Virus record (IMG/VR): IMGVR_UViG_3300009149_000014
Span: 1 to 64,000 of that record
Length of the DNA stretch: 64,000 nt
Reading direction: 5' to 3' (one strand)
DNA from: a virus
Shown here piece by piece: positions 10,158 through 43,763 of the stretch (position 1 is its first letter; every line of letters starts with the position of its first letter). Below the pieces are notes generated by a model. That model did not search any database. It saw only the letters and a list, made by a program, of their open reading frames with translations, and was not told the DNA's origin. The position numbers and the translations under genes were made by a program.

Positions 10158-10804
10158 TGGCAAAATTCGAACTGTTGTGTTCAAAAGATCAAGTAGCCGT
10201 TATCAAGATCGGCAACTCTATTTATTATGTCGATCTTGATAACCATTTTGATGTTCTGGTCTATGATTCTGAGTTTAACAAACAAAATATTATAGTTCCA
10301 GAATACTGGCTTCCCGAGGTCACTCGTGGTGAAGCTACTCTCGCCGTGCTTAAAGCCAGCATGACTGCGTATGAGAATGGGTTTAATGCTGGATACTCTA
10401 TTAAATCAAAGCGTCATTTCAAGCACTTTGCTGAGAAATTGGCTCAATCGATGATGAATCCTGAACTTGCCAAACGCATTGTTCAGCTTTTTTGGGTCGA
10501 GCTTCGCCCATTTGATGTTATCAAGGACATGGTGGCTAAAATTGTTTCGAACGAACAAATTCGTTCGAAAACGGCTCGTGCTTCGCGTATGACCCTTGAT
10601 CGATATATTCCTCGTGCTGCATTTGAAGGTGACAAAGAATATCGTGACAAAATATTCACAATTATACAAGACATGGAACCTGTAACATTTGATCCTACTG
10701 ATGAACTCCTCAACGTTTTAGATCTTGAGGACACAGATGTGCCACATCTGATACAAAATATCGACAAAATAGTGGGATTACGAACCAATGCCAGAACCGA
10801 GTGA
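10157..10804 (+). CDS. hypothetical protein coupled to the actin-like gene (215 aa)
   Basis: 215 aa beginning in the TAATG overlap with the actin-like ATPase, so it is translationally coupled to it. Mixed alpha/beta, with a basic middle (SIKSKRHFKHFAEK, RSKTARASRMTLDRY) that could bind nucleic acid. No known motif was recognised. Filament ATPases are often paired with a DNA-binding adaptor (ParR-like), and this gene is the positional candidate. No sequence similarity supports that. It overlaps the start of the polymerase gene by 17 bases. Confidence 0.6.
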   Translation: MAKFELLCSKDQVAVIKIGNSIYYVDLDNHFDVLVYDSEFNKQNIIVPEYWLPEVTRGEATLAVLKASMTAYENGFNAGYSIKSKRHFKHFAEKLAQSMMNPELAKRIVQLFWVELRPFDVIKDMVAKIVSNEQIRSKTARASRMTLDRYIPRAAFEGDKEYRDKIFTIIQDMEPVTFDPTDELLNVLDLEDTDVPHLIQNIDKIVGLRTNARTE

Positions 10805-14371: not shown

Positions 14372-17300
14372 GATAGAAACATGGGCAGAATTCGAAGAAT
14401 TGGTCAGGACCTCTTCGTCTCATTTGCCTCAAGACTATCAAAAACGCATTGAATTCGAATTATACGAGCTTAACAAACAGGGTCTTAATGGTTTGTGGCT
14501 CGAATATATTGCTACTGATGCAAAATTCGATTCGAATCCCAACAATTTGCTGATCCCGTGGGTTCTACAAATGTTGACTGATATGACAGATCCGATGACC
14601 CTTCGGACGTCACCATGTCTGGTCAGTACAAGCTATGATGAAGTTGCCGCTTATGTTGAAGAACATGGCGAACCTCCCCATGATTTCCTTAAAGATTCCG
14701 ATGTTCCGGATATCGACATTGATTGTCTCCCAGCAGCTCGTGATCCAATCAAGGATTATGCTATTCGTCGCTATGGTGATGGCGATTCATTAAGTGATTT
14801 GCAAGTTTGTAGTGTAGGCACATGGCAGACATACAAATTCAAAATGGCTATTCAAGACGCGGCCACCGCTTTAGGGTACATGCATCGGAAAGAGGCTGAA
14901 AAGCTTACGTCCAATCTACCTGAAGATCTCGATAACCTAAAACCGGGTGGTTTCGCTACATGCAAAGGCATTATTACCAATGATGCTGGTGAACACAAAG
15001 AATGCGGACATAAGCATTACAAATATCAATGTCCCAAATGTGGTAGTGAAATCACTGATGCTCCTACTCTTGAGCGATTACTCAAAGAAAATGAAGAACT
15101 GAACAAGTTCGCGATTCAATATCCATCTGTGATTGCATATGCCGCCAAAATGGTCGGTCGAATCCGCAACATGGGTATGCACGCTGGTGCTCTGATTATT
15201 GCCAATTCTAAATTGCTCGGTAATATCCCATTAGGCAAGAACAAAGCAGACGGCCCATGGGTGTCCATGTGGTCCGAAGGCAGTAATCAACAATTGTCGA
15301 AATGCGGATATATCAAGTGGGACATTCTTGGACTCAAGACTCTTGAGTATATTTACGATTGTTGCCGCATGATTAGGGTTAATCGCGGTATTTCTTTTGG
15401 TATTCCACAAGAAATCGAAGGTTATGGTGGTTGTTATGAATTGTCAGGTCTAGATGAAGTAGATCCCGAAGCTGATTATTGTGGCAAGTTTTATGGTCCG
15501 GATGGTGTTGAACATGAGATCAGATATAATGATTCTCATACTTACAAGCTTATTAATACCCAACGTACTGACACGATCTTTCAATTCGATACGTCTCTGG
15601 CTAAATCGATTTTGGCCGATGCATCCGAAGGTGACGGTGTTAGTGATCCACACCAATTGACATTGCTCAATGCTCTTGGCCATCCTGGTCCAATGCAATC
15701 TATTCCAAAAATTTTGGCGAATCGCGATGATCCATCTCAGTCATGGAAAGAAGAATTAAAATCTCGTTCTCCGATTATGTACGATATTCTTAAGACGACT
15801 TACGGACACGTATGTTTCCACGAGACAACTAAGATTACCAAAAGCAATGGTCAAGAATGCTACATTACTGATATTAAAGCGGGAGACACAGTATTTTCTG
15901 TAGACGAAGACAGAAATATTAATATTAATGAGGTTGAATGTTGTGGTCCGACATATTTCGGCGATGGTCTTTGTATCACTTTAAGCAACGGTTATAAATT
16001 CATTGTTACCGACAATCATGATGTTCCCACATATGATGGTGTATTGGACGCTTGTGATTTGCGAGTTGGGGACTTGCTCGGCGTACCAAAATCACTATCG
16101 GTTGATGTTGATAAAAAATTTGAAAATTGCGTTGATTGGCTTGGTGACCCAGAGGATGCTGCTTATTTAATAGGATTCTTGGTTGGTGATGGTTCATTGT
16201 CTGGGTCTGGTGTTTCAATATGCTGTGGCAACGACCCAAATATCACTAATATCTTAGAAGATTTTATTTCAAAGTCGTTTAAGCCTATTAATATTCATAA
16301 ATATTGGCATTGTAGATCATGGTATCTACAGTTGTCTACAGGTGTCAAGAAAGAGAAAAATTTTGACATCAGAACCTTTGTTGATAACATGGATTGGTGG
16401 CAAGAAGCTTATTCATCTTACTCTGGTCAAGATATTTCTGAATTTATCGGGAAAAGTGCGTGGTGGACCTATAAGAGGATTAGAGAGTTAGGTATTGATG
16501 TTACCGGTTCTTCAAAAAATCCTTGGAAGTCAAAATTCATTGACACCATTGACTATCTTGGTCTACGATGTTCGGTTTATCACAAGAGAATTCCACATCA
16601 AATACTATCCGCTTCAAGACAGATTAGACAATATTTTTTAGCTGGTTTAATAGAATCGGATGGCCATCTTTCTGAGAACGATGAATCTTGCTATGTATCG
16701 TCTATTAATGATGATTTGTTGGATGATATTAGATGTCTTTGTACCTCTTTGGGTATTGGAACACATTTTTCCGAACATCATAGAATCTATATATGGGACA
16801 CCAAAGAATTAGAATCTGCGATTAATGATAAATTATTATTTAAATCATTTAATAAATCTTTAACCAGCGGCTCACACTCATATTACGTTTCTAAATATGA
16901 ATTCCATCGATTGTTTAAAGATTCTGGTTTGTCGCAACGAAAGTTTGCTTGTGTTTATGGTATTGCTAGAAGCCATTTCAGAAACAATTCTTCGTTAATT
17001 TCGAAGAATGTCGCTGATAAAATTGGAGTATCAACAGGAGATTTGAATTATGTTAAAGTGACTCGTATTGATAGAGTCACTGGTCAGTATTTTTGGAATT
17101 TATCTGTAAAGAATGATCATAGTGTAATCGCAAATGGTGTATATCTTAAACAGTGTTATCAAGAGCAATTAACTGCTCTATGGCAACGGCTGGCTGGCTT
17201 TTCGGCCACAGAAGCTCAAGCGGCTCGTAAGGATATTGCTAAAAAGAAGATTCACAAACTTCCAGCAATTAAGGAAAAATGGGTGCGTGGTGCCACAAAA

Positions 17301-18461
17301 ACTCTTGGTGCAGATTTTGCAAATGATTATTGGTCAGTTTTAGAGACGTTTGGACGTTACGCTTTCAATCGTAGTCACGGTGTTGCATACGCCGCTATTA
17401 TTGCATATCGTTGCACATGGTTCAAGGCCCACTTTTTCCCCGAGTGGATCGCATCTGTTCTTAGTACCTGTGATCCGAAGAAAGCTCCACGTTATATTTC
17501 GATGGCTCGGGCTGAAGGATGGAGACCTACTGATATTACAAATATTGGTCGACCACCAGCGGAAGGTTATGAAAAATTCGATATTATCCCAGTAGATATC
17601 AACAACCTGAGCCCGAACTTTAGTGTGATTGGGAATGTTGTTTCTGTTGGTATGCTGTCGATTAAGGGTATCGGAGAATCAGATCGTGCCGTTGCAGAAA
17701 TGGACGCACATTTCGAATCGCTCGATGATTTTGTTGCGAAAACTAATGCTGGTAAGACTTTGGTCGAACGATTGATTCGGCTTGGTGCGTTTGAGAAAAT
17801 ACCAGGACATTCTAATAGTCGTGCATTGTGGTATTACTATTCATACACGCATAAGAAATTGAGCACGGCTGAACGTCGTGAATTATACCCAAAGCTATTG
17901 CAAGCTAGTGGTTGGACACCTGAAAAGATCGAGGACGAACGTGATCGGCAAGTTGATGCTTATCGCGAATTATATCCTAAGAAAAAAGAGCAGAATTATC
18001 CTAAAAAGGTGACTGAATGGATGCCTGCGGATAAGCATGATTTGTCCACATTCTGCGAAATGTTCGAAGATTATAAAATCGCCGAGATTATTACATTCGA
18101 AGACGAGTATCTTGGTTATCATTTGTCCAATCCATTGTTGATGTACGATACGAGAGCAAATAGAGATATTGACGGTTGTATTGAAGATTGTATGGTCAAT
18201 AAACCAGCATTTCTCGAATGTATTATCGTCGAGGTCAATCGTGGTGCGACACAAAAAGGTGACCCATATTGTCGTTTAAATGTTGCTGATGGAAGACAAA
18301 CCACAACAGTCTTCATTTGGAGCAACAATCTTGATCGCATTAATCCTGCTCTATTAAGAAAGGGTGTCGCGGTTATGATTCCAGTCGGTTATCAACCTAA
18401 ACGTAAATCTTTCACTATGCTCAAAGACAACGTAATCATCCCGTTGAATCGAAAAGACTAA
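14349..18461 (+). CDS. dnaE: DNA polymerase III alpha, C-terminal half (catalytic palm, fingers, OB fold), intein-containing
   Basis: 1370 aa from ATG 14349, overlapping the previous gene by 23 bases; 923 aa after excision of the intein. About 105 unrecognised residues precede the catalytic palm motif PDIDIDC (two metal-binding Asp). The third Asp lies in KWDILGLKTL. HAGALII, QFDTSLA, LNALGHPGPMQ, CYQEQLTALWQRLAG and AFNRSHGVAYAAI follow in the family order. A CxxC pair (CPKCGSE, near residue 220) is an unusual addition. VGMLSIKGIGE and the (HhH)2 region come next, then an OB fold (LECIIVEVNRGATQKG). No epsilon, clamp or clamp-loader gene is visible in the window. It acts with the N-half product as the phage replicase. 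Confidence 0.93.
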   Translation: MTTSLANKIETWAEFEELVRTSSSHLPQDYQKRIEFELYELNKQGLNGLWLEYIATDAKFDSNPNNLLIPWVLQMLTDMTDPMTLRTSPCLVSTSYDEVAAYVEEHGEPPHDFLKDSDVPDIDIDCLPAARDPIKDYAIRRYGDGDSLSDLQVCSVGTWQTYKFKMAIQDAATALGYMHRKEAEKLTSNLPEDLDNLKPGGFATCKGIITNDAGEHKECGHKHYKYQCPKCGSEITDAPTLERLLKENEELNKFAIQYPSVIAYAAKMVGRIRNMGMHAGALIIANSKLLGNIPLGKNKADGPWVSMWSEGSNQQLSKCGYIKWDILGLKTLEYIYDCCRMIRVNRGISFGIPQEIEGYGGCYELSGLDEVDPEADYCGKFYGPDGVEHEIRYNDSHTYKLINTQRTDTIFQFDTSLAKSILADASEGDGVSDPHQLTLLNALGHPGPMQSIPKILANRDDPSQSWKEELKSRSPIMYDILKTTYGHVCFHETTKITKSNGQECYITDIKAGDTVFSVDEDRNININEVECCGPTYFGDGLCITLSNGYKFIVTDNHDVPTYDGVLDACDLRVGDLLGVPKSLSVDVDKKFENCVDWLGDPEDAAYLIGFLVGDGSLSGSGVSICCGNDPNITNILEDFISKSFKPINIHKYWHCRSWYLQLSTGVKKEKNFDIRTFVDNMDWWQEAYSSYSGQDISEFIGKSAWWTYKRIRELGIDVTGSSKNPWKSKFIDTIDYLGLRCSVYHKRIPHQILSASRQIRQYFLAGLIESDGHLSENDESCYVSSINDDLLDDIRCLCTSLGIGTHFSEHHRIYIWDTKELESAINDKLLFKSFNKSLTSGSHSYYVSKYEFHRLFKDSGLSQRKFACVYGIARSHFRNNSSLISKNVADKIGVSTGDLNYVKVTRIDRVTGQYFWNLSVKNDHSVIANGVYLKQCYQEQLTALWQRLAGFSATEAQAARKDIAKKKIHKLPAIKEKWVRGATKTLGADFANDYWSVLETFGRYAFNRSHGVAYAAIIAYRCTWFKAHFFPEWIASVLSTCDPKKAPRYISMARAEGWRPTDITNIGRPPAEGYEKFDIIPVDINNLSPNFSVIGNVVSVGMLSIKGIGESDRAVAEMDAHFESLDDFVAKTNAGKTLVERLIRLGAFEKIPGHSNSRALWYYYSYTHKKLSTAERRELYPKLLQASGWTPEKIEDERDRQVDAYRELYPKKKEQNYPKKVTEWMPADKHDLSTFCEMFEDYKIAEIITFEDEYLGYHLSNPLLMYDTRANRDIDGCIEDCMVNKPAFLECIIVEVNRGATQKGDPYCRLNVADGRQTTTVFIWSNNLDRINPALLRKGVAVMIPVGYQPKRKSFTMLKDNVIIPLNRKD
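15813..17153 (+). mobile_element. intein in the DnaE C-half at the YQEQ motif (447 aa, LAGLIDADG type, Gln-terminated)
   Basis: It starts at Cys in TYGHV-CFHETTKITK and ends NGVYLKQ before Cys +1, restoring TYGHV-CYQEQ. The host site matches the conserved polymerase YQEQ motif. Block B is FIVTDNHDV. The endonuclease motifs are YLIGFLVGDG and FLAGLIESDG, both with the acidic residue. An extra roughly 60-residue stretch before block F contains a helix-turn-helix-like segment (SQRKFACVYGIARSHFR). Block G is atypical: the usual penultimate His is Lys and the terminal Asn is Gln. Gln-terminated inteins exist, but the combination deserves a splicing test. Confidence 0.92.
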
Positions 18462-23219: not shown

Positions 23220-23471
23220 ATGAAGAATATCCGTGCTTTCGACATTGTAATAATAACCAATCCCGCTGGTGTTCTTGGCCAAAAGGGAGGTTTCGACTCT
23301 AGTGGTAGATGGTCTGTAGTATCTAGCCACGACGAGTTTATTGTTTTATCACGTGGAGCACGTATCCTACGTGTTAAACCTGATGCTGTTGAAGTTTTTG
23401 GCCATTTCACTATGGATGTGAAAATGGATACCGGTATTGACTCTGATATAGGGGATGAAGTTGGTGGCTAA
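23220..23471 (+). CDS. small hypothetical protein upstream of recA (83 aa)
   Basis: The frame is open further upstream, but that part lies antisense to the 297-aa gene. ATG 23220 follows the intergenic gap and gives an 83-residue protein beginning MKNIRAFDIVIITN. It looks beta-rich, and the last residues overlap the recA start by 17 bases, implying translational coupling to RecA. No family recognised. Confidence 0.5.
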   Translation: MKNIRAFDIVIITNPAGVLGQKGGFDSSGRWSVVSSHDEFIVLSRGARILRVKPDAVEVFGHFTMDVKMDTGIDSDIGDEVGG

Positions 23472-25677
23472 AACTAAATCGAGTAATTTAGCAATTGAAG
23501 ATTTGTCTGATCTCAAAAACCATTTTGAGAAGAAGTATGGCGAAGGAACTGTCCGATTTGCGGGCGATAAGGCGATCGTCGAAGTCGATGTTGTTCCAAC
23601 CGGTGTGATTAGCATCGATGAAGCAATTGGGTGTAAAGGAATTCCCCGTGGTCGAATCATTGAAATTTATGGCCCTGAATCAAGTGGTAAGACGACCACA
23701 TGTCTCAAAATCGGAGCCGCATTCCAAAACACAATGTTCGATATTAAGGACGATAAAGGGGTTGTGATCGGTCAACGTAAAGGCCGAGTAGCTTTTGTTG
23801 ATGTTGAACATGCTTTTGATCCTAAATGGGCACAAGCTATCGGACTTGATGTCAATGAATTGATCTTCGCTCAACCCGACTATGGCGAACAAGCTTATGA
23901 TATTGTCGAAATGATCGCGAAATCTGGGAAAGTAGAATTGATCATTCTCGACTCTGTTGCTGCAATGGCTCCGAAAGCTGAAATCGAAGGAACGCTAGAA
24001 GATAGTAATGCCATTGGAGCCCAAGCTCGAATGAATAGTCAGGCATTCCGAAAGTTGAAGGGGATTGTATCTGACAATAATTGTACATTGATGTGCGTGA
24101 ATCAAATTCGTGAGAAAATTGGAGTTATGTTCGGGTGCTTGCATGCGGATACACTTATTCCGTTCGTTGATGGTCGGATCTTGCCTATCAGACAAGTTTG
24201 TGATGAAAAAGTCGAAGGCGAAGTTTGGTCTTTTAACGAAAAGACAAAAGAGTTCGAACCAAAGAAAATCACTGATTGGCATTACAATGGTGATGTTGAA
24301 TCTCCAGACGATTACTTGCATGTTTCATTACGTGGGCCAGGCACTAAAAATGGTTCCATGCAGATTACCGTGACGCCCAATCATGAAGTGTTGCATCGTG
24401 GCGAATTTGTGCGAATGGATACGTTGGATGTTGGCGATAAACTAACAACGAAACAAGAATGTTTTGTGGTTAATGATTCCACTGGGAAATTAAATGGTTC
24501 TCTTGGTCAATTTTTGTCTGGTGTTTTGTCTGGTGATTCCCATATCTCCAAAAACCCAAAAAGATTAGGAGCTTCTTTAAAAATCAGGGATAATATCGAT
24601 ACTGACTACATGAAATGGAAATCGGAAAAAATCAATGAGTTTTTGCAAATGACTCAATACAAATGTTCATCTGGTAGTTTTTTCTCTTCTGATGTATTTC
24701 AAGAATTCGCAAAGTTGAAAGATTTATATCCAAATCGTGACCCGATGCTTTTATTAAATGATTTTTCGTGGCTTGGATTTGCAATTTGGATTATGGATGA
24801 TGCCGTCTATGAAAGAGGGCGTTATCAATTATCCATAAAGAGATTCCGTGGAAATTTTGATAAACTCGACGAAATTAGTAATGCGTTGGATGAATTTGGA
24901 TTATATCACCATATGTCGAAAGGTGGTAAGGTCACATTTGATGCGTCTGTCTCAGAACATATCGCAGGGAATATTTGTGTTTTTGTTCCAGTTTGTATGG
25001 ATAGGAAGCTACCAGTTCACAAACGCGGACAGTATTCTGAATTTGAATTACTTCGAGACACAGAATTCACAACCGCTGATGTTGAAATAACCGGAATCAG
25101 ATATGCTAGTATGAGACAGATGAAACAAAAAGGCAAATATGACATTTCTGTGGAAGACAATTATAATTACATGGCTGGCGGGAATCCTCTAGGTGTCATT
25201 GTTCATAACTCGCCTGAAACAACTCCAGGTGGTCGTGCTCTGAAATTCTATGCTTCTGTTCGCATGGACATTCGTCGCACAGGTTCATTCAAGGTCGGTG
25301 ATACCATTGTTGGTAATGAAACCAAAGTGACATTCAAGAAGAATAAAGTCGCTCCGCCTTTTACTGTGGCTCATTACAACATCACTTTTGGCCTTCCAGA
25401 ATATCCAATTTCTGGTGTTGATCCTTATTCCAGTCTCATCGAATCTGCTAAAGCCAAGAAGATTGTTACGACGGCTGGTAGTCACTTGAAATATGGTGAC
25501 ATATCATTGGGCAATGGGCTGGCTGCTTCGGCTGCTACATTGTCCGTAGACCCAAATTTATTCCAGCAACTTTATCGTCATGTGGTTACTGGATCAGCAC
25601 AATGCCATACACAGCTCCCCTCTACGAACGAGGTAACACCGTCTACCTCCGAGAATCTGCCGCAGTCGGATTCCTAG
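23455..25677 (+). CDS. recA: RecA recombinase, intein-containing
   Basis: 740 aa precursor, about 382 aa after excision of the 358-aa intein, which is the usual RecA length. It is a bacterial-type RecA rather than a T4 UvsX. It has Walker A GPESSGKTTT at about 77-86, FVDVEHAFDP, the Walker B stretch LIILDSVAAM, the L1 region with EGTLEDSNAIGAQARMNSQ, the NQIREKIGVMFG motif, and SPETTPGGRALKFYASVRMDIRR at the rejoined junction. The last roughly 25 residues overlap the next gene by 76 bases. RecA would catalyse strand exchange using ends made by gp46/gp47. The start is preceded by TATAGGGG. Confidence 0.95.
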   Translation: MKLVAKTKSSNLAIEDLSDLKNHFEKKYGEGTVRFAGDKAIVEVDVVPTGVISIDEAIGCKGIPRGRIIEIYGPESSGKTTTCLKIGAAFQNTMFDIKDDKGVVIGQRKGRVAFVDVEHAFDPKWAQAIGLDVNELIFAQPDYGEQAYDIVEMIAKSGKVELIILDSVAAMAPKAEIEGTLEDSNAIGAQARMNSQAFRKLKGIVSDNNCTLMCVNQIREKIGVMFGCLHADTLIPFVDGRILPIRQVCDEKVEGEVWSFNEKTKEFEPKKITDWHYNGDVESPDDYLHVSLRGPGTKNGSMQITVTPNHEVLHRGEFVRMDTLDVGDKLTTKQECFVVNDSTGKLNGSLGQFLSGVLSGDSHISKNPKRLGASLKIRDNIDTDYMKWKSEKINEFLQMTQYKCSSGSFFSSDVFQEFAKLKDLYPNRDPMLLLNDFSWLGFAIWIMDDAVYERGRYQLSIKRFRGNFDKLDEISNALDEFGLYHHMSKGGKVTFDASVSEHIAGNICVFVPVCMDRKLPVHKRGQYSEFELLRDTEFTTADVEITGIRYASMRQMKQKGKYDISVEDNYNYMAGGNPLGVIVHNSPETTPGGRALKFYASVRMDIRRTGSFKVGDTIVGNETKVTFKKNKVAPPFTVAHYNITFGLPEYPISGVDPYSSLIESAKAKKIVTTAGSHLKYGDISLGNGLAASAATLSVDPNLFQQLYRHVVTGSAQCHTQLPSTNEVTPSTSENLPQSDS
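24136..25209 (+). mobile_element. intein in RecA at the MFG/SPETT site (358 aa, LAGLIDADG type)
   Basis: It begins at Cys after GVMFG (block A CLHADTLIPFVDG) and ends GVIVHN before Ser +1, restoring MFG-SPETTPGG. Block B is ITVTPNHEVL. The first endonuclease motif is LSGVLSGDSHIS. The second (AIWIMDDAVYERG) has diverged from LAGLIDADG but keeps its acidic pair. Block F is ISVEDNYNYMAGG. The insertion interrupts the DNA-binding L2 edge of RecA. Mycobacterial RecA inteins are known, and I recall that the M. leprae one uses this general position, but I cannot verify that here. Confidence 0.94.
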
Positions 25678-26015: not shown

Positions 26016-27356
26016 ATGTACGAAGATACTTCTAAATTCCTTACGGAGTCTCAACCAACCGAAAGCGAATTTGGGAAGTACGTTGAAAAGTCTCTGATCC
26101 CACTCGCTTTAGACCATCCTGATTTATTCTTATCAATCGGTCGATTTTTAACACCAGACTTGTTCGAAGCTCCCGAAGCCAAGTATATTATTGCTATTAT
26201 CCTGAATCATTTGGAGAAGCACCAGGTTGTACCAACTCGTGGTTTGCTCCGCGATTTTGTACTTCAACACCTCACACAAGACGATCCATACGAACCTGTT
26301 CTTGAACTGGTCGACGCGAAATCCAATCCTCGTGATGTTCCGATTCTTCGGGATAAAATGGTCGAATGGGCTAGGAAACGTGCATTTGGTTTGATCTATT
26401 CCGATGAGGCGATGCTCGCTTATCAGAATAATGATTTTGATGCAATTGAGAAGATTATCCAGGAAGCTCATAGGATCACTGATTTGCAGGTTCAGGGCCT
26501 GTGGCTTCTTGATAATTACGAAATTCTTTTTAATCCGTCCGTGCTTGAACATCGTACCACTGGATTTCCGCGTCTTGACGGATTTCTCAATGAAGGCGGT
26601 CCGGGGCCGAAAGAGGTGTTATGTTGGCTCGCTCCAACTAATGTTGGTAAGTCTATTGTTCTTTGCAACAATGCGATCACTTCTTGGCAAGGTCCTGGAT
26701 CTGGTGGTCGAATCGGCCAGGATGTGTTACTTGTCACATTCGAGCTTGATTATATTAAGACAGCTATGCGTTGTATGGGTGTGATGGGCGAGAATATCCC
26801 GATGGATAAGCTTATTAGTCGCCAAGATGAAGTGTCTTCAAAGATTGATTTTATGAAGACCACGTATGATGGTCGTATCTTCATTTCGGAATTGCCTCCT
26901 GAAGAATGTAGTGTCGACCATTTATATCATTTATTAGACAATCTTCGTCGTTCTCACGGTTGGCATCCTGATGTTGTTATTTTGGACTACCTCGATCTTA
27001 TGGTTAGTCGTAACAAATATGCCAATCGGGATGATTATAGTCGTCAAAAGGCTGTGGCGAATGAAGTACGTGGTTTTGCTAAAAATGAGAACGTCTTGGT
27101 GTTCACTGCGACTCAAACGAATCGCTCAGCTGGTAATGATGGTCATGAGATTGGCTTAAAGGATACTGCGGAATCTTATGCCAAACAATTCTCGATGGAT
27201 TATATCATTTCTATCAATCAAACTGCTGAAGAACGCGAAGCTAGTCCACCTCGTTTCCGATTCGTTATCGCAAAGAATCGAAACGGCCCTAAAGGCAAAA
27301 CAATAACTTGCGAAGTCAATTACAATACTATGAAGGTGCGAGAGGTTAACACGTAA
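26016..27356 (+). CDS. gp41: DnaB-type replicative helicase (T4 gp41-like)
   Basis: 446 aa RecA-fold hexameric helicase. The N-terminal helical domain (1-150) is followed by Walker A APTNVGKS at about 206-213, the LLVTFELD motif at 238, Walker B VVILDYLDLM at 320-329, and the sensor-like FTATQTNRS at 363-371. An arginine-finger region (FRFVIAKNRNGPKG) lies near 415-428. The length matches T4 gp41 (475 aa) better than bacterial DnaB. It unwinds the fork and recruits the toprim primase encoded at 59290. ATG 26016 has AGGA upstream, provided by the last GTS repeat. Confidence 0.92.
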   Translation: MYEDTSKFLTESQPTESEFGKYVEKSLIPLALDHPDLFLSIGRFLTPDLFEAPEAKYIIAIILNHLEKHQVVPTRGLLRDFVLQHLTQDDPYEPVLELVDAKSNPRDVPILRDKMVEWARKRAFGLIYSDEAMLAYQNNDFDAIEKIIQEAHRITDLQVQGLWLLDNYEILFNPSVLEHRTTGFPRLDGFLNEGGPGPKEVLCWLAPTNVGKSIVLCNNAITSWQGPGSGGRIGQDVLLVTFELDYIKTAMRCMGVMGENIPMDKLISRQDEVSSKIDFMKTTYDGRIFISELPPEECSVDHLYHLLDNLRRSHGWHPDVVILDYLDLMVSRNKYANRDDYSRQKAVANEVRGFAKNENVLVFTATQTNRSAGNDGHEIGLKDTAESYAKQFSMDYIISINQTAEEREASPPRFRFVIAKNRNGPKGKTITCEVNYNTMKVREVNT

Positions 27357-27357
27357 C

Positions 27358-27543
27358 ATGAAACTGAAAATCGAAATTGAGATCGAAGCGTCTGAGACGA
27401 TCATCGAAACAATCAAAAGAGGTCCTTTCGTTGTAGATAATGACGGATCAGGGCACAAGATCAAAGTCGGAGACAATATTGTAGTTCCGAATCGCAAGTG
27501 CAAGATTAAATACTATAGTCCATCACCCGTCAAAAAGGAATAA
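27358..27543 (+). CDS. small hypothetical protein (61 aa)
   Basis: 61 aa, beginning one base after the helicase stop and thus translated from the same message. The N-terminus is an amphipathic KLKIEIEIEASE strand or helix, and the rest is a small beta-rich fold with a KRGPFVV...VGDNIVVPN pattern like an SH3-type barrel. The family is unknown. Confidence 0.6.
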   Translation: MKLKIEIEIEASETIIETIKRGPFVVDNDGSGHKIKVGDNIVVPNRKCKIKYYSPSPVKKE

Positions 27544-27548
27544 TCTTA

Positions 27549-27974
27549 ATGGCAATGCCCAAGTCTCAAGCTCTTGAAGATCATGAGAGCAAGAACGCTG
27601 GAAATCCTAGTTCTGATGCTCGTGCTTCTCTTGAGAAGTCAAATCTTGTGTCGGAACCAGTTGCTGATTGTACAGTTCTACCAGAAGTCAGCGTCTTCAA
27701 TGATTATGTTGCTGTCTTGTTGACACCACGTGTTTCATCAATTGCTCTTCCGGGCAACAGCGAATGGTCCAATGTTGGAGTGATCGTTGGTGTTGGACCG
27801 AAATGCGAGAACAATTTTGTTCTTGGTCAGAACGTTGTTATCAACCCGAAGGGTGGTGCAATTGTGATGGTCGAAGAACAAGGTTCAGCATACGAGGGTA
27901 AAGTTGTCAATCTTTACCAAGAACGTAATGTTTTTTATGTCGCCAAAACTGGACCTTCAGTTAAAGTCCAGTAA
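27549..27974 (+). CDS. GroES-like co-chaperonin (T4 gp31-type)
   Basis: 141 aa. After a roughly 45-residue unstructured N-terminus, the sequence NDYVAVLLTPRVSSIALPG and GVIVGVGP...FVLGQNVVINP follows the GroES beta-barrel pattern: the first strand, a mobile loop (SSIALPG, in the place of GGIVL), then 'VGVGP' and 'GD-VI'. The C-terminal VFYVAK resembles GroES ILAIVE. Phages such as T4 encode their own co-chaperonin to fold the major capsid protein in host GroEL. It lies within the replication block. Confidence 0.6.
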   Translation: MAMPKSQALEDHESKNAGNPSSDARASLEKSNLVSEPVADCTVLPEVSVFNDYVAVLLTPRVSSIALPGNSEWSNVGVIVGVGPKCENNFVLGQNVVINPKGGAIVMVEEQGSAYEGKVVNLYQERNVFYVAKTGPSVKVQ

Positions 27975-27995: not shown

Positions 27996-28412
27996 ATGCC
28001 AGTTTACATCTACCAGTGCAATGATTGTGCCTCGAAATACACTGAGGAACAATTGCATGAAATGAATGAAGATGAAGTCGCTGAGTCGATTTTATTTGAG
28101 ACTTATCATGGTATGGAGCCATCGGTAGATGAACTGGCAAAAGCTGTTATTTGTCCACGTTGTCAAGGGACGGAATGTACTAAATCATTCTTAGGTGTGA
28201 ATATTCGTGGTTATCTTCGTGGTTACGGTTGGAAAGATAAAGCTGGTGCTAAACGAGACATGCACGTTTATCATTTAGATAATCAAGATCCGTATTCTAA
28301 ACACAGAGTGCCCGGTGAAACAGACCACATTCGTCGTCAATTGAAAGACGGCGGAAAGCACCAAGCTAATTCCAAGATCTTTATAGCACCAAAATCGCCG
28401 GATGACAAATGA
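27996..28412 (+). CDS. FmdB-like zinc-ribbon protein (138 aa)
   Basis: The N-terminus MPVYIYQCNDCASKYTEEQ is the FmdB-type putative regulatory zinc ribbon, except that the second CxxC (CPRCQG) is displaced to about residue 52 by an acidic insert. The C-terminal half is basic, with RGYGWKDKAGAKRDMHVYHL. It may be a small DNA- or RNA-binding protein. It overlaps the polymerase-like gene in ATGA, so the two are coupled. Confidence 0.65.
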   Translation: MPVYIYQCNDCASKYTEEQLHEMNEDEVAESILFETYHGMEPSVDELAKAVICPRCQGTECTKSFLGVNIRGYLRGYGWKDKAGAKRDMHVYHLDNQDPYSKHRVPGETDHIRRQLKDGGKHQANSKIFIAPKSPDDK

Positions 28413-29593
28413 AATGTTATGCTGTAGCGACGATAGATAGTAAAGGTCGCCCAGCATTCTTTCATTACGAAAATCCAAACAAAACGATATCTTTCGAAAT
28501 CTTCCGCTCTGGAAGTGGTCGCACTCTTAATGAGACATTCAAGCGTTTCGACGGTGCAGCTGAGTTATTAAGCTGGGCCGCACAGGGTGATCTCAGGTCC
28601 CCAAATATTGGCGACTTGATACGGGTTTTTGAACTGGAAGAATTGCATGGTGAGACCCAAGCCCGTGATTATGCATTCAGTTCTATAAAGACTATTGGCG
28701 ATAGTACCAAAGACGCTATTCTGTGTCGAAAACTCATTGAACTGGTCAAAACCACTCCTGACCGCCCATATCAAACCATTCTTGCTAAAGCTCAGAGTGT
28801 TTATGCTGGTCTGGAACGAACTGGTTTAATGTTGAATTATACCAAAATGAATCCGAAGTGGTCTTGGGATACATATTCAGGTCGGTCTAAATGTTTCGAC
28901 TTTAATGTCCAAGGTTGGTCTGAACCCGACGCTATTTATCAACCTACTATACCATATGAATGTTTGCAAATTCATTTCGACTGGATTTGTGCTGACTTTC
29001 GTGTCGCGTCTATTTTATCTGGCGATCCAGCACTCATACATTCATTCGAGGATAGTGATCCTTATACTTTCTTATCCAAGCGTTTGTCTGGCAGTGCCCA
29101 TGAAATGCGTGATGATGCCAAGCTTTTACTTCTTAAGACGATCAATAGCCTTGATTATAATGATCAGATTATTAAAGGTGAATTTCCGAAATTGTGTGCG
29201 TGGTTAGAAAAGACTTTGGTCGGGTTGCGTGAATCAAAGAGTTCTTATAATATTGTTGGACGTGAATTCGTTATTAAGACTGATAGATCTGAGCGATCAG
29301 TCTTCAATGCTGTGTTGCAGGGATCTGTTGCTGCTGCAATGCAGAATTCATTGTGGCGAGTTAGGAGAATGTTCCCTAATTACTTAGTGACCGATATCCA
29401 CGATGGTTTGGTTTTGTCTGTGCCGAACGACAAGCAAGTCGCCATGCATGTTATTGATTCTGTTGGTAAGATGTTTTTACGTCCATTTCAGGGTGTATTT
29501 AATACAGATCTTGTTTTCCCATACAGAGTGTCAATCGGGAAACGTTGGAAAGAGTGGAAAGAAGCTCGTGTTGTGCGTTCTGATCAAAAATAA
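28409..29593 (+). CDS. highly divergent, minimal family A DNA polymerase-like protein (394 aa)
   Basis: Only the C-terminal half is recognisable. CADFRVASILSGDPALIHSF at about 194-214 matches motif A of Pol I (DYSQIELR...LSGD), with the catalytic Asp at 196. MRDDAKLLLLKTIN at about 233-246 keeps the Arg and Lys of motif B, but the following FG-YG is lost. FNAVLQGSVAAAMQNSL at about 299-315 matches the NxxIQGTAADL helix. DIHDGLVLSVPN at 329-340 matches motif C (VHDE), with the Asp kept and Glu changed to Gly. No 3'-5' exonuclease motifs are visible, and 394 aa is far below Klenow size. It could be a specialised gap-filling polymerase or an inactive accessory. I infer family membership from motif order. 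Confidence 0.6.
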   Translation: MKCYAVATIDSKGRPAFFHYENPNKTISFEIFRSGSGRTLNETFKRFDGAAELLSWAAQGDLRSPNIGDLIRVFELEELHGETQARDYAFSSIKTIGDSTKDAILCRKLIELVKTTPDRPYQTILAKAQSVYAGLERTGLMLNYTKMNPKWSWDTYSGRSKCFDFNVQGWSEPDAIYQPTIPYECLQIHFDWICADFRVASILSGDPALIHSFEDSDPYTFLSKRLSGSAHEMRDDAKLLLLKTINSLDYNDQIIKGEFPKLCAWLEKTLVGLRESKSSYNIVGREFVIKTDRSERSVFNAVLQGSVAAAMQNSLWRVRRMFPNYLVTDIHDGLVLSVPNDKQVAMHVIDSVGKMFLRPFQGVFNTDLVFPYRVSIGKRWKEWKEARVVRSDQK

Positions 29594-29632: not shown

Positions 29633-30208
29633 ATGAGCAAAAAGTTTTTTGATACATTGCCGCAAGAGATTTTGGACTCCAGACTTTTCAAGTTTGAGGT
29701 TGTCCTCCCTTCTGTGTATGAACACTTTTGCCCTGCATGCCATATTGTCTTTGACACTTCTACTATTCAGTGTCCGCAGTGCAACACCAATCAATTGGTA
29801 TCTCGAAACCGCACCATTTTAGTCGATATCGCAGCCAATGTCGGCTTAGATTATGACAATGTTGAGCGTTCTCTCGACGATATACCATCTCAGTTCGCAT
29901 TTTGGACCGCTGTTTATGCGGAAGCCAAATATCGAACCAATATCCTCGAACGTGTAGTCAAAACGGCTAGAGCTACTGCACATGATGAGGTTATCCAAGC
30001 AGCCATGAAGGAAGGTACACGTCTTGCCCAAGACTCTATTAAGATTCTTGTTGAAAAGGATGAGCGTGTTAATCGTGCAGAAGGTATGCTAGCTCAGGCT
30101 AATATGATCGCAGCCAAGCTATACTACATGCACGAAGCCGTCAAGATGAAGGCAGATCTTGGTCGTACTTTAACAAGTCTGAAACGTTCTGAATCGAATG
30201 GGAGTTAG
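29633..30208 (+). CDS. zinc-ribbon plus long-helix protein next to SSB (191 aa)
   Basis: Residues 30-55 hold two CxxC knuckles (CPACHIVF and CPQCNTN). The remaining 130 residues are alpha-helical and charged (KYRTNILERVVKTARATAH...). It is immediately upstream of the gp32-like gene and downstream of a polymerase-like gene. T4 UvsY, a helical mediator that loads the recombinase onto SSB-coated DNA, is the functional analogue by position and helical character. I see no convincing sequence match, so the role is a hypothesis. Confidence 0.55.
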   Translation: MSKKFFDTLPQEILDSRLFKFEVVLPSVYEHFCPACHIVFDTSTIQCPQCNTNQLVSRNRTILVDIAANVGLDYDNVERSLDDIPSQFAFWTAVYAEAKYRTNILERVVKTARATAHDEVIQAAMKEGTRLAQDSIKILVEKDERVNRAEGMLAQANMIAAKLYYMHEAVKMKADLGRTLTSLKRSESNGS

Positions 30209-30210
30209 CA

Positions 30211-31407
30211 ATGAGTTATGACATTGATGCAATGAGGAAAAAAGTCCGTACCCAGATGTCTGGTAAGCGGAACGATCCTGACGAATTTAAGCCCGCCAAG
30301 GCTGAAACCGGAAAAGAATTGAAATATCGATTCTTCATCCTTCCGCCCTATGGTGAAAATGATCCTCTTCGAACTGGGCCAGCTTCCCACTCGATGGACA
30401 CATTTTTCATTCCATACGGTATTCACTTTGGTGTTTGTCGGCCTCCACAGCCTTGCCCTCGCGTTTGCAATGGTGAGCCTTGTGAGATCTGTCAACATGG
30501 TTTCGATCTGATGAAGGAAGCGGGAGAAGACCGTGATGCTAAGCGTGTCATTTCCAGCGATTGGATGGCAGCGACTTATCACGTCGTTAATGTCTATTTC
30601 CCGGTTGGTAACGGTAACCCAAGCGATCTTGAAGGTCGTGTGATGTATTACAAAGCACCCAAAACGTGCTTTGACATTTGGGTCGCGGCCCTTGAACGCA
30701 CCGGCCCCGGCGATAAGCTTGATCCTCAGGCTTATGGGGCGTTTTTTGACGAGAATGCTGCGTTCTTGTTCCAATTGTCGTGCAAGTATAAGGGTCAAAA
30801 CAATACGTATGAATCTTCTGGCTTCCTGTCAAACGGCGGTGCCCCAATGGCTATCTCCGATCAAGCCGGTATCCAGCAGATCATGGCTGCTCGATTCGAT
30901 TTGAGCACCAAACTGGAGCAACCAAATCTGACGACTCTCCATAGTGTTGCTCAGAATTTGATCCATGGTGTTGCTCAAGATGACGGCTTCTCCACTCCTG
31001 TGACCGCTGCTGCTCCTGTGGCTGCTACTGCTCCGGTTCAACCAGTAGCTCCTGTGGCTCCTGCTCCGGTTCAACCTGTAGCTCCTGTAGCTCCTGTAGT
31101 TCCTGTTCAACCAGTAATGGCCGCTCCGGTGGCTCCTACTCCAGATCCTGTGGCTGCTGCTCAGGCCGCTCTTGCTGCTGCTCAAGCTCAAGTCGCCGCT
31201 GCTGCCCAAGCTGCTGCTCAGGCTCAAGTCGCTGCCACCCCAGTTCAACAGGTTGCTCCTGCTCCGGTTGCTCCTGCTCCGGTTGCTCCTGCTCCGGTTG
31301 CTCCTGCTGCGGCTGTCGTCGAAACGGTTCAGCCACCGGCTGGAGGTGGTGGTGGCGATGATGTGATGAACGAAATTGAAAGCATGTTAGAAGGATTTAA
31401 GAATTAG
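30211..31407 (+). CDS. gp32: single-stranded DNA-binding protein, gp32-like, with long Ala/Pro linker
   Basis: 398 aa. The N-terminal basic segment (RKKVRTQMSGKR) matches the cooperativity region of gp32. The core contains the zinc site (HFGVCRPPQPCPRVCNGEPCEIC), more Cys-rich than T4's, followed by VVNVYFP and MYYKAPKTCFDIW typical of the OB fold. From about residue 255 there is a roughly 120-residue low-complexity stretch of APV, AAAQAQ and VAPAP repeats. The protein ends with an acidic tip (DDVMNEIESMLEGF), the usual protein-interaction tail. Its role is to coat ssDNA and coordinate polymerase, helicase and recombinase. Confidence 0.85.
   Translation: MSYDIDAMRKKVRTQMSGKRNDPDEFKPAKAETGKELKYRFFILPPYGENDPLRTGPASHSMDTFFIPYGIHFGVCRPPQPCPRVCNGEPCEICQHGFDLMKEAGEDRDAKRVISSDWMAATYHVVNVYFPVGNGNPSDLEGRVMYYKAPKTCFDIWVAALERTGPGDKLDPQAYGAFFDENAAFLFQLSCKYKGQNNTYESSGFLSNGGAPMAISDQAGIQQIMAARFDLSTKLEQPNLTTLHSVAQNLIHGVAQDDGFSTPVTAAAPVAATAPVQPVAPVAPAPVQPVAPVAPVVPVQPVMAAPVAPTPDPVAAAQAALAAAQAQVAAAAQAAAQAQVAATPVQQVAPAPVAPAPVAPAPVAPAAAVVETVQPPAGGGGGDDVMNEIESMLEGFKN
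31251..31310 (+). repeat. four 15-bp tandem repeats in the SSB linker
   Basis: Three perfect copies and one near-perfect copy of GGTTGCTCCTGCTCC encode (VAPAP)n. Nearby stretches repeat the same codons more loosely, consistent with expansion by slippage of a flexible linker. Confidence 0.9.
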
Positions 31408-31408
31408 T

Positions 31409-32212
31409 ATGCTTCCAGGAACCCATCTATTAATTGATGGCAAGAATATCCTCTACCGGGCGATCTTCGTTAAATCGAAGGATAGCCCGGTAGAGGTTTT
31501 CTTTAGAATAATCCAAAAGTCGATAAGAACAGCCAATGCTACTTCTTTCCACGTCTTTTGGGACTGCCCAAGGAATGAAACTTGGCGTAGAAAACTATAC
31601 CCACCGTATAAGGCAAATCGCAAAGAAAGCGACCCCGAAATCGGTGAGGCCATCGGTATCAATTTGCAAGTCTTGAAAAAAGTGATACCAGTATTGGGAT
31701 TCCGCCAATATTACTGCGACAAACTTGAAGCAGATGATTTGGTTTATGCTTTCACCTCGTTATTCCATCCAACTGATATTGTAGTATTATCATCTGATCA
31801 TGATTTATTACAGATCCCATTTCGGTTTCTCAATGCTCGCCAACTTAAACCAGCTGGTGAATTTTACGAAAAACCAACAGTCAATCCTGTTTTGCAAAAA
31901 TGCTTAATGGGTGACAAATCAGATAATATCGCTGGATATAATGGAATTGGTCCAGTCAAAGCAACAAAATTGTTGCAATCTCCGACCAAATTGCATGAAT
32001 TTGTGTCGGCTAGCCCGCGAACTTTTCTATTTAATATGAACATTGTCGATTTGTCATTGTGTCCTTACCAAATGAGGGCACAATACACCATCCTGAATGG
32101 TATCCAAGAGGAAACTAAATTCGATCTTAACTCTGCGAGAGGCATTTTAAGCCAATATAATATGTATCCGGCTTTGCACGAGTTAGATTGGTCAGCTTCT
32201 CACGAGGAATAA
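31409..32212 (+). CDS. 5'-3' exonuclease / RNase H (FEN-like, T4 rnh type)
   Basis: 267 aa. The N-terminal LLIDGKNILYRAIF holds the first metal-binding Asp. FWDCPRNETWRRKLYPPYKANR contains the second acidic residue and the basic arch. LEADDLVYAF and LSSDHDLLQ carry the central acidic cluster. MGDKSDNIAGYNGIGPVKATKLL is the helix-3-turn DNA-binding motif with its terminal Asp. The order is that of phage FEN-family enzymes (T4 RNase H is 305 aa). It removes Okazaki RNA primers before ligation. It begins 1 base after the SSB stop. A strong hairpin lies inside its 5' coding end. Confidence 0.9.
   Translation: MLPGTHLLIDGKNILYRAIFVKSKDSPVEVFFRIIQKSIRTANATSFHVFWDCPRNETWRRKLYPPYKANRKESDPEIGEAIGINLQVLKKVIPVLGFRQYYCDKLEADDLVYAFTSLFHPTDIVVLSSDHDLLQIPFRFLNARQLKPAGEFYEKPTVNPVLQKCLMGDKSDNIAGYNGIGPVKATKLLQSPTKLHEFVSASPRTFLFNMNIVDLSLCPYQMRAQYTILNGIQEETKFDLNSARGILSQYNMYPALHELDWSASHEE
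31451..31495 (+). promoter_or_regulatory. strong intragenic hairpin, terminator- or attenuator-like
   Basis: CTCTACCGGGC (31451-31461) is perfectly complementary to GCCCGGTAGAG (31485-31495). Inside, CTTCG pairs with CGAAG around a TTAAAT loop. The stem is followed by GTTTTCTTT. It lies 42 bases after the ATG of the exonuclease gene, in coding sequence. It could attenuate transcription or be an RNA-processing site separating abundant SSB message from the nuclease. Confidence 0.6.
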
Positions 32213-41708: not shown

Positions 41709-41726
41709 AATTTGGGAAAGCTACCA

Positions 41727-43763
41727 ATGACTGCAATTGATGATCTAAGACAAAAAATCGACGAAGCCGCTTCTGCCTATTACAATCGCGGTGTTTCAAT
41801 CGTCAGCGATGATGAATTCGACACAATGCTCGACATGCTGCGACGTCTTGACCATAAAGACGAACGTCTCACCCGAATTGGTTTTGAGCCAACTCTCGAA
41901 AAGGTGGAACATGCTCATCCAATGGGTTCGCTCGATAACATCGATGCCAATAAACCAAATGAGCTTCAGACCTACATTAAGCGTAACAAAGATTACACTC
42001 TTGCTGATTCGCTTTATCACGTTACTCCCAAGATCGACGGATCATCGATCGCGTTGACCTACAAGGGTGGAGTGTTGACCCAAGTGCTAACCCGTGGCAA
42101 TGGCGAAGTGGGTCAAGATATCACAGCTAAAGCATCATTTTTCAAAGGTGTGCCGACCAAGCTACCAGAACCAGTGGATATTACCGTCCGTGGTGAAGCA
42201 GTTATGCACCGGGACGTTTTCATCAAGTATATTGAGTCCGCTCAACTCGAAGGTGTGCGAAATCCGCGAAACGTCGGCAATGGAATTATCGTCCGAAAAG
42301 ACGCCTGCGGAGCCGGGTTGATCAATTTCTATTCTTTCAATGTCGAATCGGACACGCCAATTAAGATCTTGGATTCGGTTCATCGGTGCTACCAGTTCTT
42401 GCAAGAAATGGGTTTCACTACGCCGGATTATCAAATTGTTGCAGCTGATGGGATCACCACACTGGTCGATACGATGATCCAACGTGATTATCCTTTCGAT
42501 ATCGATGGCCTCGTGATCCGTGTTGACGATATGCGACAACGCGAAATCATCAACGAAGGTGGCGACGATCTTCGTCCCCGCAGTGACCAAGCGATCAAGT
42601 TCAACAGCAAGAAAGCTGAGACTACCATTACTGGTGTCACTGTGACTGTCGGTTCAACTGGCAAGATCACACCGACATTGACTGTTGAACCGGTCGAAAT
42701 TGGTGGGATTGTCAATAGCAATGTTTTGATCTACAATTATGATGAACCAGAACGATTGAAGATTGGTATTGGCGATAAGATTCGTGTAGTCCTTGCTGGG
42801 GATATTATCCCCAAGGTCTTGTGCGTGGTCGATAAGGCTAGTCCGCCGACTGTAATCACTGCTCCCAAGACTTGCCCATCGTGTGACCATCCGATTTCTC
42901 GCAAGCAATTGTTGAAGGGCGAATCGGTCGATTTGTATTGCACGAACCAAAAATGCCCCGGTATTCAATTTGAGAAGATCCAAGGGTTTATTGGTTCATC
43001 CAAAAGAGGAATGGGGATTCTTGGGATCGGTGAGCATTTGATCAACCATTTGATCACTTCTGGCCATGTCAAGAGTATTCCAGATCTCTATGATCTAACC
43101 GAAGATCAACTTCGAATCATGTCGCTTGGTAATGGTGTTGTTGGTGCCAAACGTGCCAAGACGATCGTTAACAACATTCAAGAATCCAAGGGGTTCACTG
43201 TTCAAAAAGTGGTGGGATCTCTTGGGATTGATGGTCTTGGCGAGCATCGTGCCGAGATCATGATGGAAGTCGCCGATGGCGGTTTGGCTACTCTTGATGA
43301 TTGGATTGCTTGTGCTAATGGTTCAGAATTGATTCTGAATTTGAAGCATCCCCATTTGCCCGCTAATGTCATGGCATCTGTTCAAAGCCAATTGGTCGCT
43401 ATGAAGGATGATTTGCTACGCTTGCGTGAGCTTGGCGTTGGTGTTCATGTGGCTCCGGTTGTAACTGAGGATGGTGGTCCGAAGCCTTTTGCTGGTAAGA
43501 CGTTTTGTTTTACTGGTACACGAATCCATTTGGATATCGTCGAGAAGCTTGGGGGTGAGGTTAAAAGTGGTGTGAGTAAGACTCTTGATTTTCTGGTCCA
43601 GCGTGATAAGTCAGAGCGTACGTCGAAGGCGAAAAAGGCTGAGGCTTATGGGACTACTGTGATTGGTGTTCCTGAGCTTGAGACGATGATTAAGGAGGCT
43701 GATCCTACGATTCTTGGGACGGCTTCGTCTGGTTTGGCTGCTGTTTTTGAAATGCTTGATTAA
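41727..43763 (+). CDS. ligA: NAD-dependent DNA ligase (LigA), full length with BRCT domain
   Basis: 678 aa from ATG 41727 (an upstream TTG is rejected); bacterial LigA is about 670 aa. The N-terminal Ia domain has AYYNRGVSIVSDDEFD. The catalytic Lys is in PKIDGSS at about residue 102, followed by TRGNGEVGQDIT. The OB fold precedes the four-Cys zinc finger (CPSCDHPI...CTNQKCPG) near 390-415. Tandem helix-hairpin-helix motifs (LGIGEHLI, LGNGVVGAKRAK, LGIDGLGEHRAE) follow, and the BRCT domain (FAGKTFCFTGTR...LGGEVKSGVSKTLDFLV) ends the protein. It seals Okazaki fragments. Many phages use ATP ligases or shortened LigA, so a full bacterial-type enzyme is notable. Confidence 0.95.
   Translation: MTAIDDLRQKIDEAASAYYNRGVSIVSDDEFDTMLDMLRRLDHKDERLTRIGFEPTLEKVEHAHPMGSLDNIDANKPNELQTYIKRNKDYTLADSLYHVTPKIDGSSIALTYKGGVLTQVLTRGNGEVGQDITAKASFFKGVPTKLPEPVDITVRGEAVMHRDVFIKYIESAQLEGVRNPRNVGNGIIVRKDACGAGLINFYSFNVESDTPIKILDSVHRCYQFLQEMGFTTPDYQIVAADGITTLVDTMIQRDYPFDIDGLVIRVDDMRQREIINEGGDDLRPRSDQAIKFNSKKAETTITGVTVTVGSTGKITPTLTVEPVEIGGIVNSNVLIYNYDEPERLKIGIGDKIRVVLAGDIIPKVLCVVDKASPPTVITAPKTCPSCDHPISRKQLLKGESVDLYCTNQKCPGIQFEKIQGFIGSSKRGMGILGIGEHLINHLITSGHVKSIPDLYDLTEDQLRIMSLGNGVVGAKRAKTIVNNIQESKGFTVQKVVGSLGIDGLGEHRAEIMMEVADGGLATLDDWIACANGSELILNLKHPHLPANVMASVQSQLVAMKDDLLRLRELGVGVHVAPVVTEDGGPKPFAGKTFCFTGTRIHLDIVEKLGGEVKSGVSKTLDFLVQRDKSERTSKAKKAEAYGTTVIGVPELETMIKEADPTILGTASSGLAAVFEMLD

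What the first reader, a model, noticed from the sequence alone, without database searches (positions are those of the whole stretch)
28409..29593. Minimal, highly divergent family A polymerase-like protein in a phage that uses Pol III alpha
Motifs A, B (R and K only), the QGT helix and motif C appear in order over 140 residues, but motif C has Gly in place of Glu and the motif B FG-YG is missing. There is no exonuclease. A second, non-replicative polymerase-like gene next to SSB, zinc-ribbon and GroES-like genes suggests a dedicated gap-filling, primer-extending or lesion-bypass role, or an evolved inactive scaffold.
Basis: partly seen in the sequence, partly recalled or inferred. Interest (0 to 1): 0.75.

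Follow-up and report, generated by a model that had tools for sequence, protein, structure and literature searches.

The report
Thumbless mini DNA polymerase of phages
A group of large, uncultured phages that copy their DNA with a bacterial-type replicase also carry a pared-down relative of DNA polymerase I that has lost its thumb and its proofreading sites but kept its catalytic residues, probably as a helper polymerase for short patches of DNA; similar stripped-down enzymes were first described in 2024, so this is a new branch of a barely studied kind.

Summary
The ORF (28409-29593, 394 aa) is real and is a family A polymerase relative (Pfam DNA_pol_A above cutoff). AlphaFold2 with 46 relatives gives a confident model (pLDDT 95.6, pTM 0.93) whose best PDB matches are KlenTaq and Pol theta. 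R159, D191, D196, R234, K238, N300, Q304 and D332 are invariant in 46/46 relatives. The non-acidic residue after motif C's Asp is the family rule (S 40, G 3, C 3), and an active Thermus phage polymerase also has Ser there. The thumb (~100 aa) is gone in all members, the fingers are shortened, and no exonuclease residues remain. dN/dS is 0.03-0.10. The gene sits in a conserved RecA-DnaB-zinc ribbon-[PolA]-UvsY-like-gp32-FEN block. 17 of 20 large contigs also encode Pol III alpha, always split; none encodes PolB. Closest published kind: divPolA1 (Yutin et al. 2024), with the same loss pattern and similar gene partners but different active-site motifs; kinship is unresolved. Most likely an active, distributive accessory polymerase for gap filling or primer extension. 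The scaffold reading is disfavoured but not excluded.

The parts
28409..29593 (+). mini-PolA: thumbless family A polymerase-like protein, 394 aa
   Evidence: its ATG overlaps the stop codon of the zinc-ribbon gene (ATGA)
28409..28753 (+). N-terminal domain (aa 1-115), modelled strand/helix order as in a 3'-5' exonuclease domain, without the Klenow catalytic residues
   Evidence: secondary structure of the model; no sequence-level match found, so inferred
28823..28885 (+). G139 to R159: 20 residues where E. coli Pol I has 124 (the thumb)
   Evidence: 18-21 residues in all members
28871..28912 (+). TYSGRSK..FNVQ motif (aa 155-168), counterpart of TATGRLSS..NLQ; R159 = R668 of Klenow
28979..29002 (+). 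motif A, D191-WICAD196-F-R198; D191 = D705, D196 = E710
29108..29146 (+). motif B / O helix remnant, R234-K238-L242-N246 = R754-K758-F762-Y766
29306..29341 (+). Q helix N300..Q304-G305-S306 (= N845..Q849)
29399..29407 (+). motif C, H331-D332-G333 (= H881-D882-E883)
23455..25677 (+). RecA/UvsX recombinase, intein-bearing
   Evidence: Pfam RecA 2.7e-90; same block in relatives
26016..27356 (+). DnaB-like replicative helicase
   Evidence: phrog_19 2e-64
27358..27543 (+). conserved 61-aa gene of unknown function
27549..27974 (+). GroES-like protein (weak match)
   Evidence: phrog_3188 E=0.016
27996..28412 (+). zinc-ribbon protein directly upstream
   Evidence: Pfam Zn_ribbon_8 1.4e-5, below cutoff
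29633..30208 (+). UvsY-like protein (weak match) directly downstream
   Evidence: phrog_2058 1.1e-7, unknown function; phrog_231 UvsY-like 0.015; present in all 46 loci
30211..31407 (+). gp32-like single-strand DNA-binding protein
   Evidence: Pfam gp32 1.4e-7
31409..32212 (+). FEN-type 5'-3' exonuclease
   Evidence: Pfam 5_3_exonuc_N 2.3e-21
10788..13388 (+). Pol III alpha, N-terminal half (PHP plus first part of palm), with intein
14304..18461 (+). Pol III alpha, C-terminal half (rest of palm, fingers, HHH), with intein
41712..43763 (+). NAD-dependent DNA ligase
59290..60417 (+). DnaG-type primase
   Evidence: phrog_47 1.5e-19

Best explanation
The gene encodes an active, non-replicative family A DNA polymerase reduced to palm and shortened fingers. 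Bulk synthesis is left to the phage's split Pol III alpha. This enzyme, with no thumb to hold the duplex and no proofreading, would add a few nucleotides per binding event, tethered by its operon partners (gp32 SSB, UvsY-like mediator, RecA). It would fill gaps left after the FEN removes primers or flaps, or extend 3' ends in recombination intermediates, before ligase seals. Shown: homology, invariant catalytic residues, thumb and fingers shortening, purifying selection, conserved gene block and co-occurrence with Pol III alpha. Inferred: catalysis, low processivity, tethering, and which substrate is used.
For: All 46 non-redundant relatives keep R159, D191, D196, R234, K238, N300, Q304 and D332, the counterparts of Klenow R668, D705, E710, R754, K758, N845, Q849 and D882. 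dN/dS is 0.03-0.10 in the pairs that could be computed; about 0.1 in the window pair, whose dS is near saturation. Model pLDDT 95.6, pTM 0.93, best PDB match KlenTaq E 6.6e-15, probability 1.00. Ser at the E883 position is compatible with activity: Tt72 polymerase has Ser there and S616A keeps 76% activity, while mutants of the D705 and D882 counterparts drop to 4% (PMC9324360). Thumb absent: 18-21 residues against 124. Gene block RecA-DnaB-(orf61)-(GroES-like)-ZnR-[PolA]-UvsY-like-SSB-FEN, with UvsY-like and SSB in 46/46. Pol III alpha in 17/20 records, PolB in 0/20, DNA_pol_A gene in 20/20. The phage has its own primase and ligase.
Against: No activity has been shown. The O-helix aromatics that contact the dNTP are mostly replaced (F762 to L in 35/46, Y766 to N in 28/46), and E710 is Asp throughout. 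A polymerase without a thumb may bind DNA too weakly to work alone. The same conservation could serve nucleotide binding without synthesis. FEN was not found in some loci, most but not all of them cut by contig ends; NAD ligase was found in only 8/20 records.
Confidence: 0.55

Rival explanations
1. Catalytically dead scaffold or adaptor: the palm is kept as a binding platform for FEN, gp32 or Pol III, without polymerisation.
For: Loss of thumb, of part of the fingers, of the O-helix Phe/Tyr and of the motif C Glu; invariant residues not typical of Pol I (W192, A195, DPY at 217-219, His at 309 in 42/46) suggest a specialised surface.
Against: Both catalytic Asp, both triphosphate-binding residues, R159 and Q304 are invariant in 46/46; dead scaffolds normally lose some of these. 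The Glu-to-Ser change is tolerated in an active enzyme.
Confidence: 0.15
2. Specialised error-prone, lesion-bypass or end-joining polymerase (Pol theta/nu-like use of the family A palm) acting on recombination intermediates.
For: Pol theta structures are among the profile and fold matches; no proofreading residues; a more open active site expected without thumb and aromatics; neighbours are recombination genes.
Against: The match to Pol theta is weaker than to KlenTaq; no helicase domain on the protein; no direct evidence on lesions or end joining.
Confidence: 0.15
3. Ribonucleotide-using enzyme: a small RNA polymerase or primer-making enzyme like single-subunit RNA polymerases.
For: Motif C HDS is the form found in T7-type RNA polymerases (own knowledge); Yutin et al. 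raise an RNA polymerase reading for divPolA2.
Against: A carboxylate is kept at the steric-gate position (D196, 46/46); the TGR..NxQ motif matches DNA polymerases; the phage encodes a DnaG-type primase; the sequence and fold matches listed in PDB are DNA polymerases.
Confidence: 0.1
4. On identity rather than mechanism: it is simply divPolA1, the published accessory PolA, with nothing further to add.
For: Same set of losses (truncated thumb, dead exonuclease, intact palm), regular DNAP elsewhere in the genome, SSB/RecA/FEN/DnaB nearby; profile match E 6e-7 over 276 columns; common ancestry not rejected (AU p = 0.22).
Against: The divPolA1 examples read have YDA at motif C, DxDxxH[LI][RK] at motif A and keep the FxxIYG helix; the family profile scores divPolA1 lower (11.6 bits) than E. 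coli Pol I (47 bits); the mini family is a 100/100 clade apart from it. Two other divPolA1 genomes named in the paper are not held here.
Confidence: 0.35

Closest known systems
divPolA1 (Yutin et al. 2024, PMC11348598; e.g. [quoted passage not shown]
   Same: Small family A protein additional to a regular DNAP; truncated thumb; inactivated exonuclease domain; shortened fingers; conserved neighbourhood with SSB, RecA, FEN and DnaB; found in large phages
   Different: Motif A DxDxxH[LI][RK] instead of DWxxADxR, motif C YDA instead of HD[SGC], O helix FxxIYG kept, no QGSVAHAM helix, order PolA-x-x-SSB-RecA-FEN-DnaB; published in 14 phages with PolA, B or C, whereas here Pol III alpha is the only other replicase found
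Bacterial DNA polymerase I, Klenow/KlenTaq part
   Same: Palm fold, TGR motif, motif A Asp, R/K of motif B, N..Q of the Q helix, motif C HD
   Different: No thumb, fingers about 25 residues shorter, E710 to Asp, E883 to Ser/Gly/Cys, F762 and Y766 mostly replaced, no exonuclease residues, FEN on a separate gene
divPolA2 (barbaviruses and others; AUR84708)
   Same: Accessory PolA-like palm without a usual thumb, beside another replicase
   Different: Unrelated N-terminal domain, variable gene context, PolB phages; family profile score only 7.3 bits
Thermus phage Tt72 DNA polymerase (PMC9324360)
   Same: Divergent phage family A enzyme with Ser at the E883 position
   Different: 703 aa, full thumb and strong 3'-5' exonuclease
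Split minimal Pol III alpha of group 2.2 jumbo phages (PMC7824862), compared with the companion replicase here
   Same: Pol III alpha on two separate genes
   Different: Those halves are minimal and accompany PolB; here the halves keep PHP and HHH domains and there is no PolB

Membership tests
Family A DNA polymerases (Pfam DNA_pol_A) | Profile match above curated cutoff | tested here: met
   37.2 bits against 34.3; 17/17 members of the first set match at E<=1
Family A DNA polymerases (Pfam DNA_pol_A) | Palm with motif A Asp and motif C Asp | tested here: met
   D191 and D332 in 46/46, aligned to D705 and D882, confident palm-type model
Family A DNA polymerases (Pfam DNA_pol_A) | Motif B RxxxKxxxFGxxYG | tested here: not met
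   R and K invariant; FG and YG lost in the window protein; Tyr kept in 18/46 and Phe in 6/46 relatives
Family A DNA polymerases (Pfam DNA_pol_A) | Thumb subdomain | tested here: not met
   18-21 residues in place of 124
Family A DNA polymerases (Pfam DNA_pol_A) | Template-directed DNA synthesis | not testable with these tools
   needs biochemistry
divPolA1 | Encoded in addition to a regular DNAP | tested here: met
   Pol III alpha in the same record
divPolA1 | Truncated thumb, exonuclease residues lost, palm catalytic residues kept | tested here: met
divPolA1 | Conserved replication neighbourhood | tested here: met
   SSB, FEN, RecA, DnaB within about 6 kb; same partners, other order, in divPolA1 phages
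divPolA1 | Sequence kinship with the published members | tested here: inconclusive
   hhalign E 6e-7 but profile score below that of E. coli Pol I; common ancestry neither supported nor rejected; of the genomes named in the paper only the immuto phage was read, LR796625 and MK892584 are not held
divPolA1 | Motif forms YDA, DxDxxH[LI][RK], FxxIYG of the three members read (one published, two found here) | tested here: not met
Single-subunit RNA polymerases (T7 type) | RNAP-specific domains and NTP preference | not tested
   only the HDS motif is shared; the listed PDB matches are DNA polymerases

The most novel reading that the evidence does not exclude
A third, independently reduced lineage of family A polymerase, widespread in uncultured large phages, that works without any thumb by borrowing DNA-holding capacity from its UvsY-like and gp32 partners, and that is an obligate companion of a split Pol III alpha replicase.
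Probability: 0.25. Interest if true: 0.75.

Novelty: new variant of a known kind. Interest (0 to 1): 0.5.

Why it matters
The right-hand polymerase is taught as palm, fingers and thumb. Here a sizeable natural family, under strong purifying selection and in a fixed gene block, keeps the catalytic residues while dispensing with the thumb, part of the fingers and most of the nucleotide-contacting aromatics. If active, it would be among the smallest natural family A polymerases and would show what the thumb is really needed for. It would also show how phages that adopted a bacterial-type Pol III replicase cover primer removal and gap repair with Pol I functions spread over separate genes (FEN, mini polymerase, ligase). 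The two Asp predictions make this directly testable.

Tried and rejected
Single-sequence search of viral contigs found nothing; neighbours used as bait (FEN, then SSB) found the family. AlphaFold2 with five near-identical sequences failed (pLDDT 40.6) and was replaced by the 46-sequence run. Search of 84,980 bacterial and archaeal genomes: no relatives. No close relative in 50,697 GenBank phage records with three different queries. N-terminal domain against exonuclease domains by profile: no match, so its descent from an exonuclease domain remains a reading of the model only. First tree run failed for a thread setting. divPolA1 genomes LR796625 and MK892584 are not held. A family-profile search of the three divPolA1 records gave no match. 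No literature found on 'thumbless' family A polymerases under that wording. Beta clamp: none found in 20 records.

Full report
WHAT WAS CHECKED. The ORF at 28409-29593 (+) encodes 394 aa; its ATG overlaps the stop codon of the zinc-ribbon gene before it (ATGA). The window is part of a 116,185-base IMG/VR virus record. Pfam DNA_pol_A matches above its cutoff (2.2e-9, 37.2 bits), Taq polymerase is the best PDB sequence match (5.8e-6), and PHROG 17 'DNA polymerase' matches at 2.8e-6. A family profile built without the window protein and its two closest kin scores it at 1e-112, while the other window ORFs and 1,000 shuffles reach at most 4.6 bits. It is the only family A gene in the record.

CORRECTED MOTIF REGISTER. 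Alignments to Taq, Klenow and phage Pol I proteins put the motif A aspartate at D191 (FDWICADFR = ALDYSQIELR), so D196 is the E710 position. Motif B is R234/K238 (R754/K758) with L242 and N246 in place of F762 and Y766. N300 and Q304 are N845 and Q849; H331-D332-G333 are H881-D882-E883.

A LARGE FAMILY. A direct search of viral contigs failed, but the neighbouring FEN and SSB led to relatives, and a family alignment then brought 72 loci, 46 of them below 90% identity to each other. The alignment used for the model and the counts below holds the window and 45 of these (one, L094, with an uncertain start, was left out). Contigs reach 408 kb. No relative was found in 84,980 bacterial and archaeal genomes, and only ordinary Pol I matches appeared in 50,697 GenBank phage records.

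CONSERVATION. In 46/46 aligned members R159, D191, W192, A195, D196, D217-P218-Y219, R234, K238, N300, Q304, G305 and D332 are invariant. The residue after D332 is S (40), G (3) or C (3), never E. The F762 position is L in 35 and F in 6; the Y766 position is N in 28 and Y in 18, which supports the helix register and suggests stepwise loss. Pairwise dN/dS is 0.03-0.10; the window pair gives about 0.10 with dS near saturation.

ARCHITECTURE. From the Gly of the helix before the thumb (G139) to R159 there are 18-21 residues in the family and 124 in E. coli Pol I, so the thumb is missing; K238 to Q304 is 62-71 residues against 91, so the fingers are shortened. AlphaFold2 with the 46-sequence alignment gives pLDDT 95.6 and pTM 0.93 (an earlier run with five near-identical sequences failed). 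Foldseek's best PDB matches are KlenTaq structures (6.6e-15, probability 1.00) and Pol theta; full-length TM-scores are modest (0.42-0.65), as may be expected for a protein lacking a subdomain. D191 lies in strand 186-192 and D332 in the turn between strands 326-330 and 333-338, as in a palm. The first ~115 residues are modelled with an exonuclease-like order of strands and helices, but no sequence relation to exonuclease domains was found; that part is inference.

GENE BLOCK AND REPLICATION SYSTEM. The order RecA - DnaB - (61-aa gene) - (GroES-like) - zinc ribbon - [mini-PolA] - UvsY-like - gp32 SSB - FEN holds across the family; UvsY-like and SSB follow in all 46 non-redundant loci, and the remaining gaps are partly due to contig ends. 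The UvsY-like and GroES-like labels rest on weak matches. Of 20 large records, 20 have a DNA_pol_A gene, 17 have Pol III alpha, on two separate ORFs, none has PolB and none a beta clamp; 8 have an NAD ligase. The window phage has a DnaG-type primase.

MECHANISM. The residues needed for two-metal catalysis and triphosphate binding are all present and invariant, which speaks for an active enzyme. The missing motif C Glu is not evidence of death: Tt72 polymerase has Ser there naturally and keeps 76% activity as S616A, whereas mutants of the two catalytic Asp fall to 4% (PMC9324360). Without thumb and proofreading the enzyme should be distributive and exposed, suited to short synthesis on DNA held by other proteins. 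Beside FEN, gp32, a UvsY-like protein and RecA, gap filling after primer removal or extension of recombination intermediates is the most likely task. The choice of substrate is inferred.

WHAT IS KNOWN. Yutin et al. 2024 (PMC11348598) described divPolA1: an extra, divergent PolA in 14 phages with truncated thumb, inactivated exonuclease domain and conserved palm, in a replication gene neighbourhood, alongside a regular PolA, B or C. The immuto phage example was read. It shares losses and partners with our family but has other motif forms (YDA; DxDxxH[LI][RK]; FxxIYG kept). Profile comparison gives E 6e-7 over 276 columns, yet the family profile scores it lower than E. coli Pol I. The tree makes the mini family a 100/100 clade and leaves its sister group open. 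Other divPolA1 genomes named in the paper (LR796625, MK892584) are not held, so some published members could belong here. The finding is therefore a new variant of a kind described two years ago, not a new kind.

VERDICT. Interest 0.5.

Noticed in passing
window 10788-13388 and 14304-18461; also most of 20 related records: Pol III alpha is split into two ORFs within the PF07733 region (profile positions ~98/99), with PHP in the first half and HHH in the second in the window; a split of this kind appears in 17/20 related large phage records. Both halves carry inteins in the window.
   Followed up: partly
window 23455-25677; L006-L011 dnaB: RecA of the window carries an intein with LAGLIDADG endonuclease; in the 73%-identity relatives DnaB is interrupted near its P-loop (after aa ~223), which looks like another intein, while the window's DnaB is uninterrupted.
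   Followed up: partly
L132:25469-26761 (-), MG592441: divPolA2 of a Vibrio phage, a published palm without the usual thumb, scores only 7.3 bits with this family's profile, so it appears to be a separate case.
   Followed up: partly
L130:7947-9173, Microcystis phage Mel-JY01; L129:8001-9356, LR756508: Unlabelled relatives of divPolA1 in a Microcystis phage (annotated hypothetical) and a 484-kb uncultured phage, with RecA, FEN and DnaB downstream.
   Followed up: partly
window 25602-26012: 136-aa ORF ending in a GTSGTSGTSG repeat, overlapping the end of RecA.
   Followed up: no
window 34878-41271: Run of glycosyltransferase-like and related genes downstream of the replication block; a counterpart of the 34878 gene lies near FEN in L019.
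   Followed up: no
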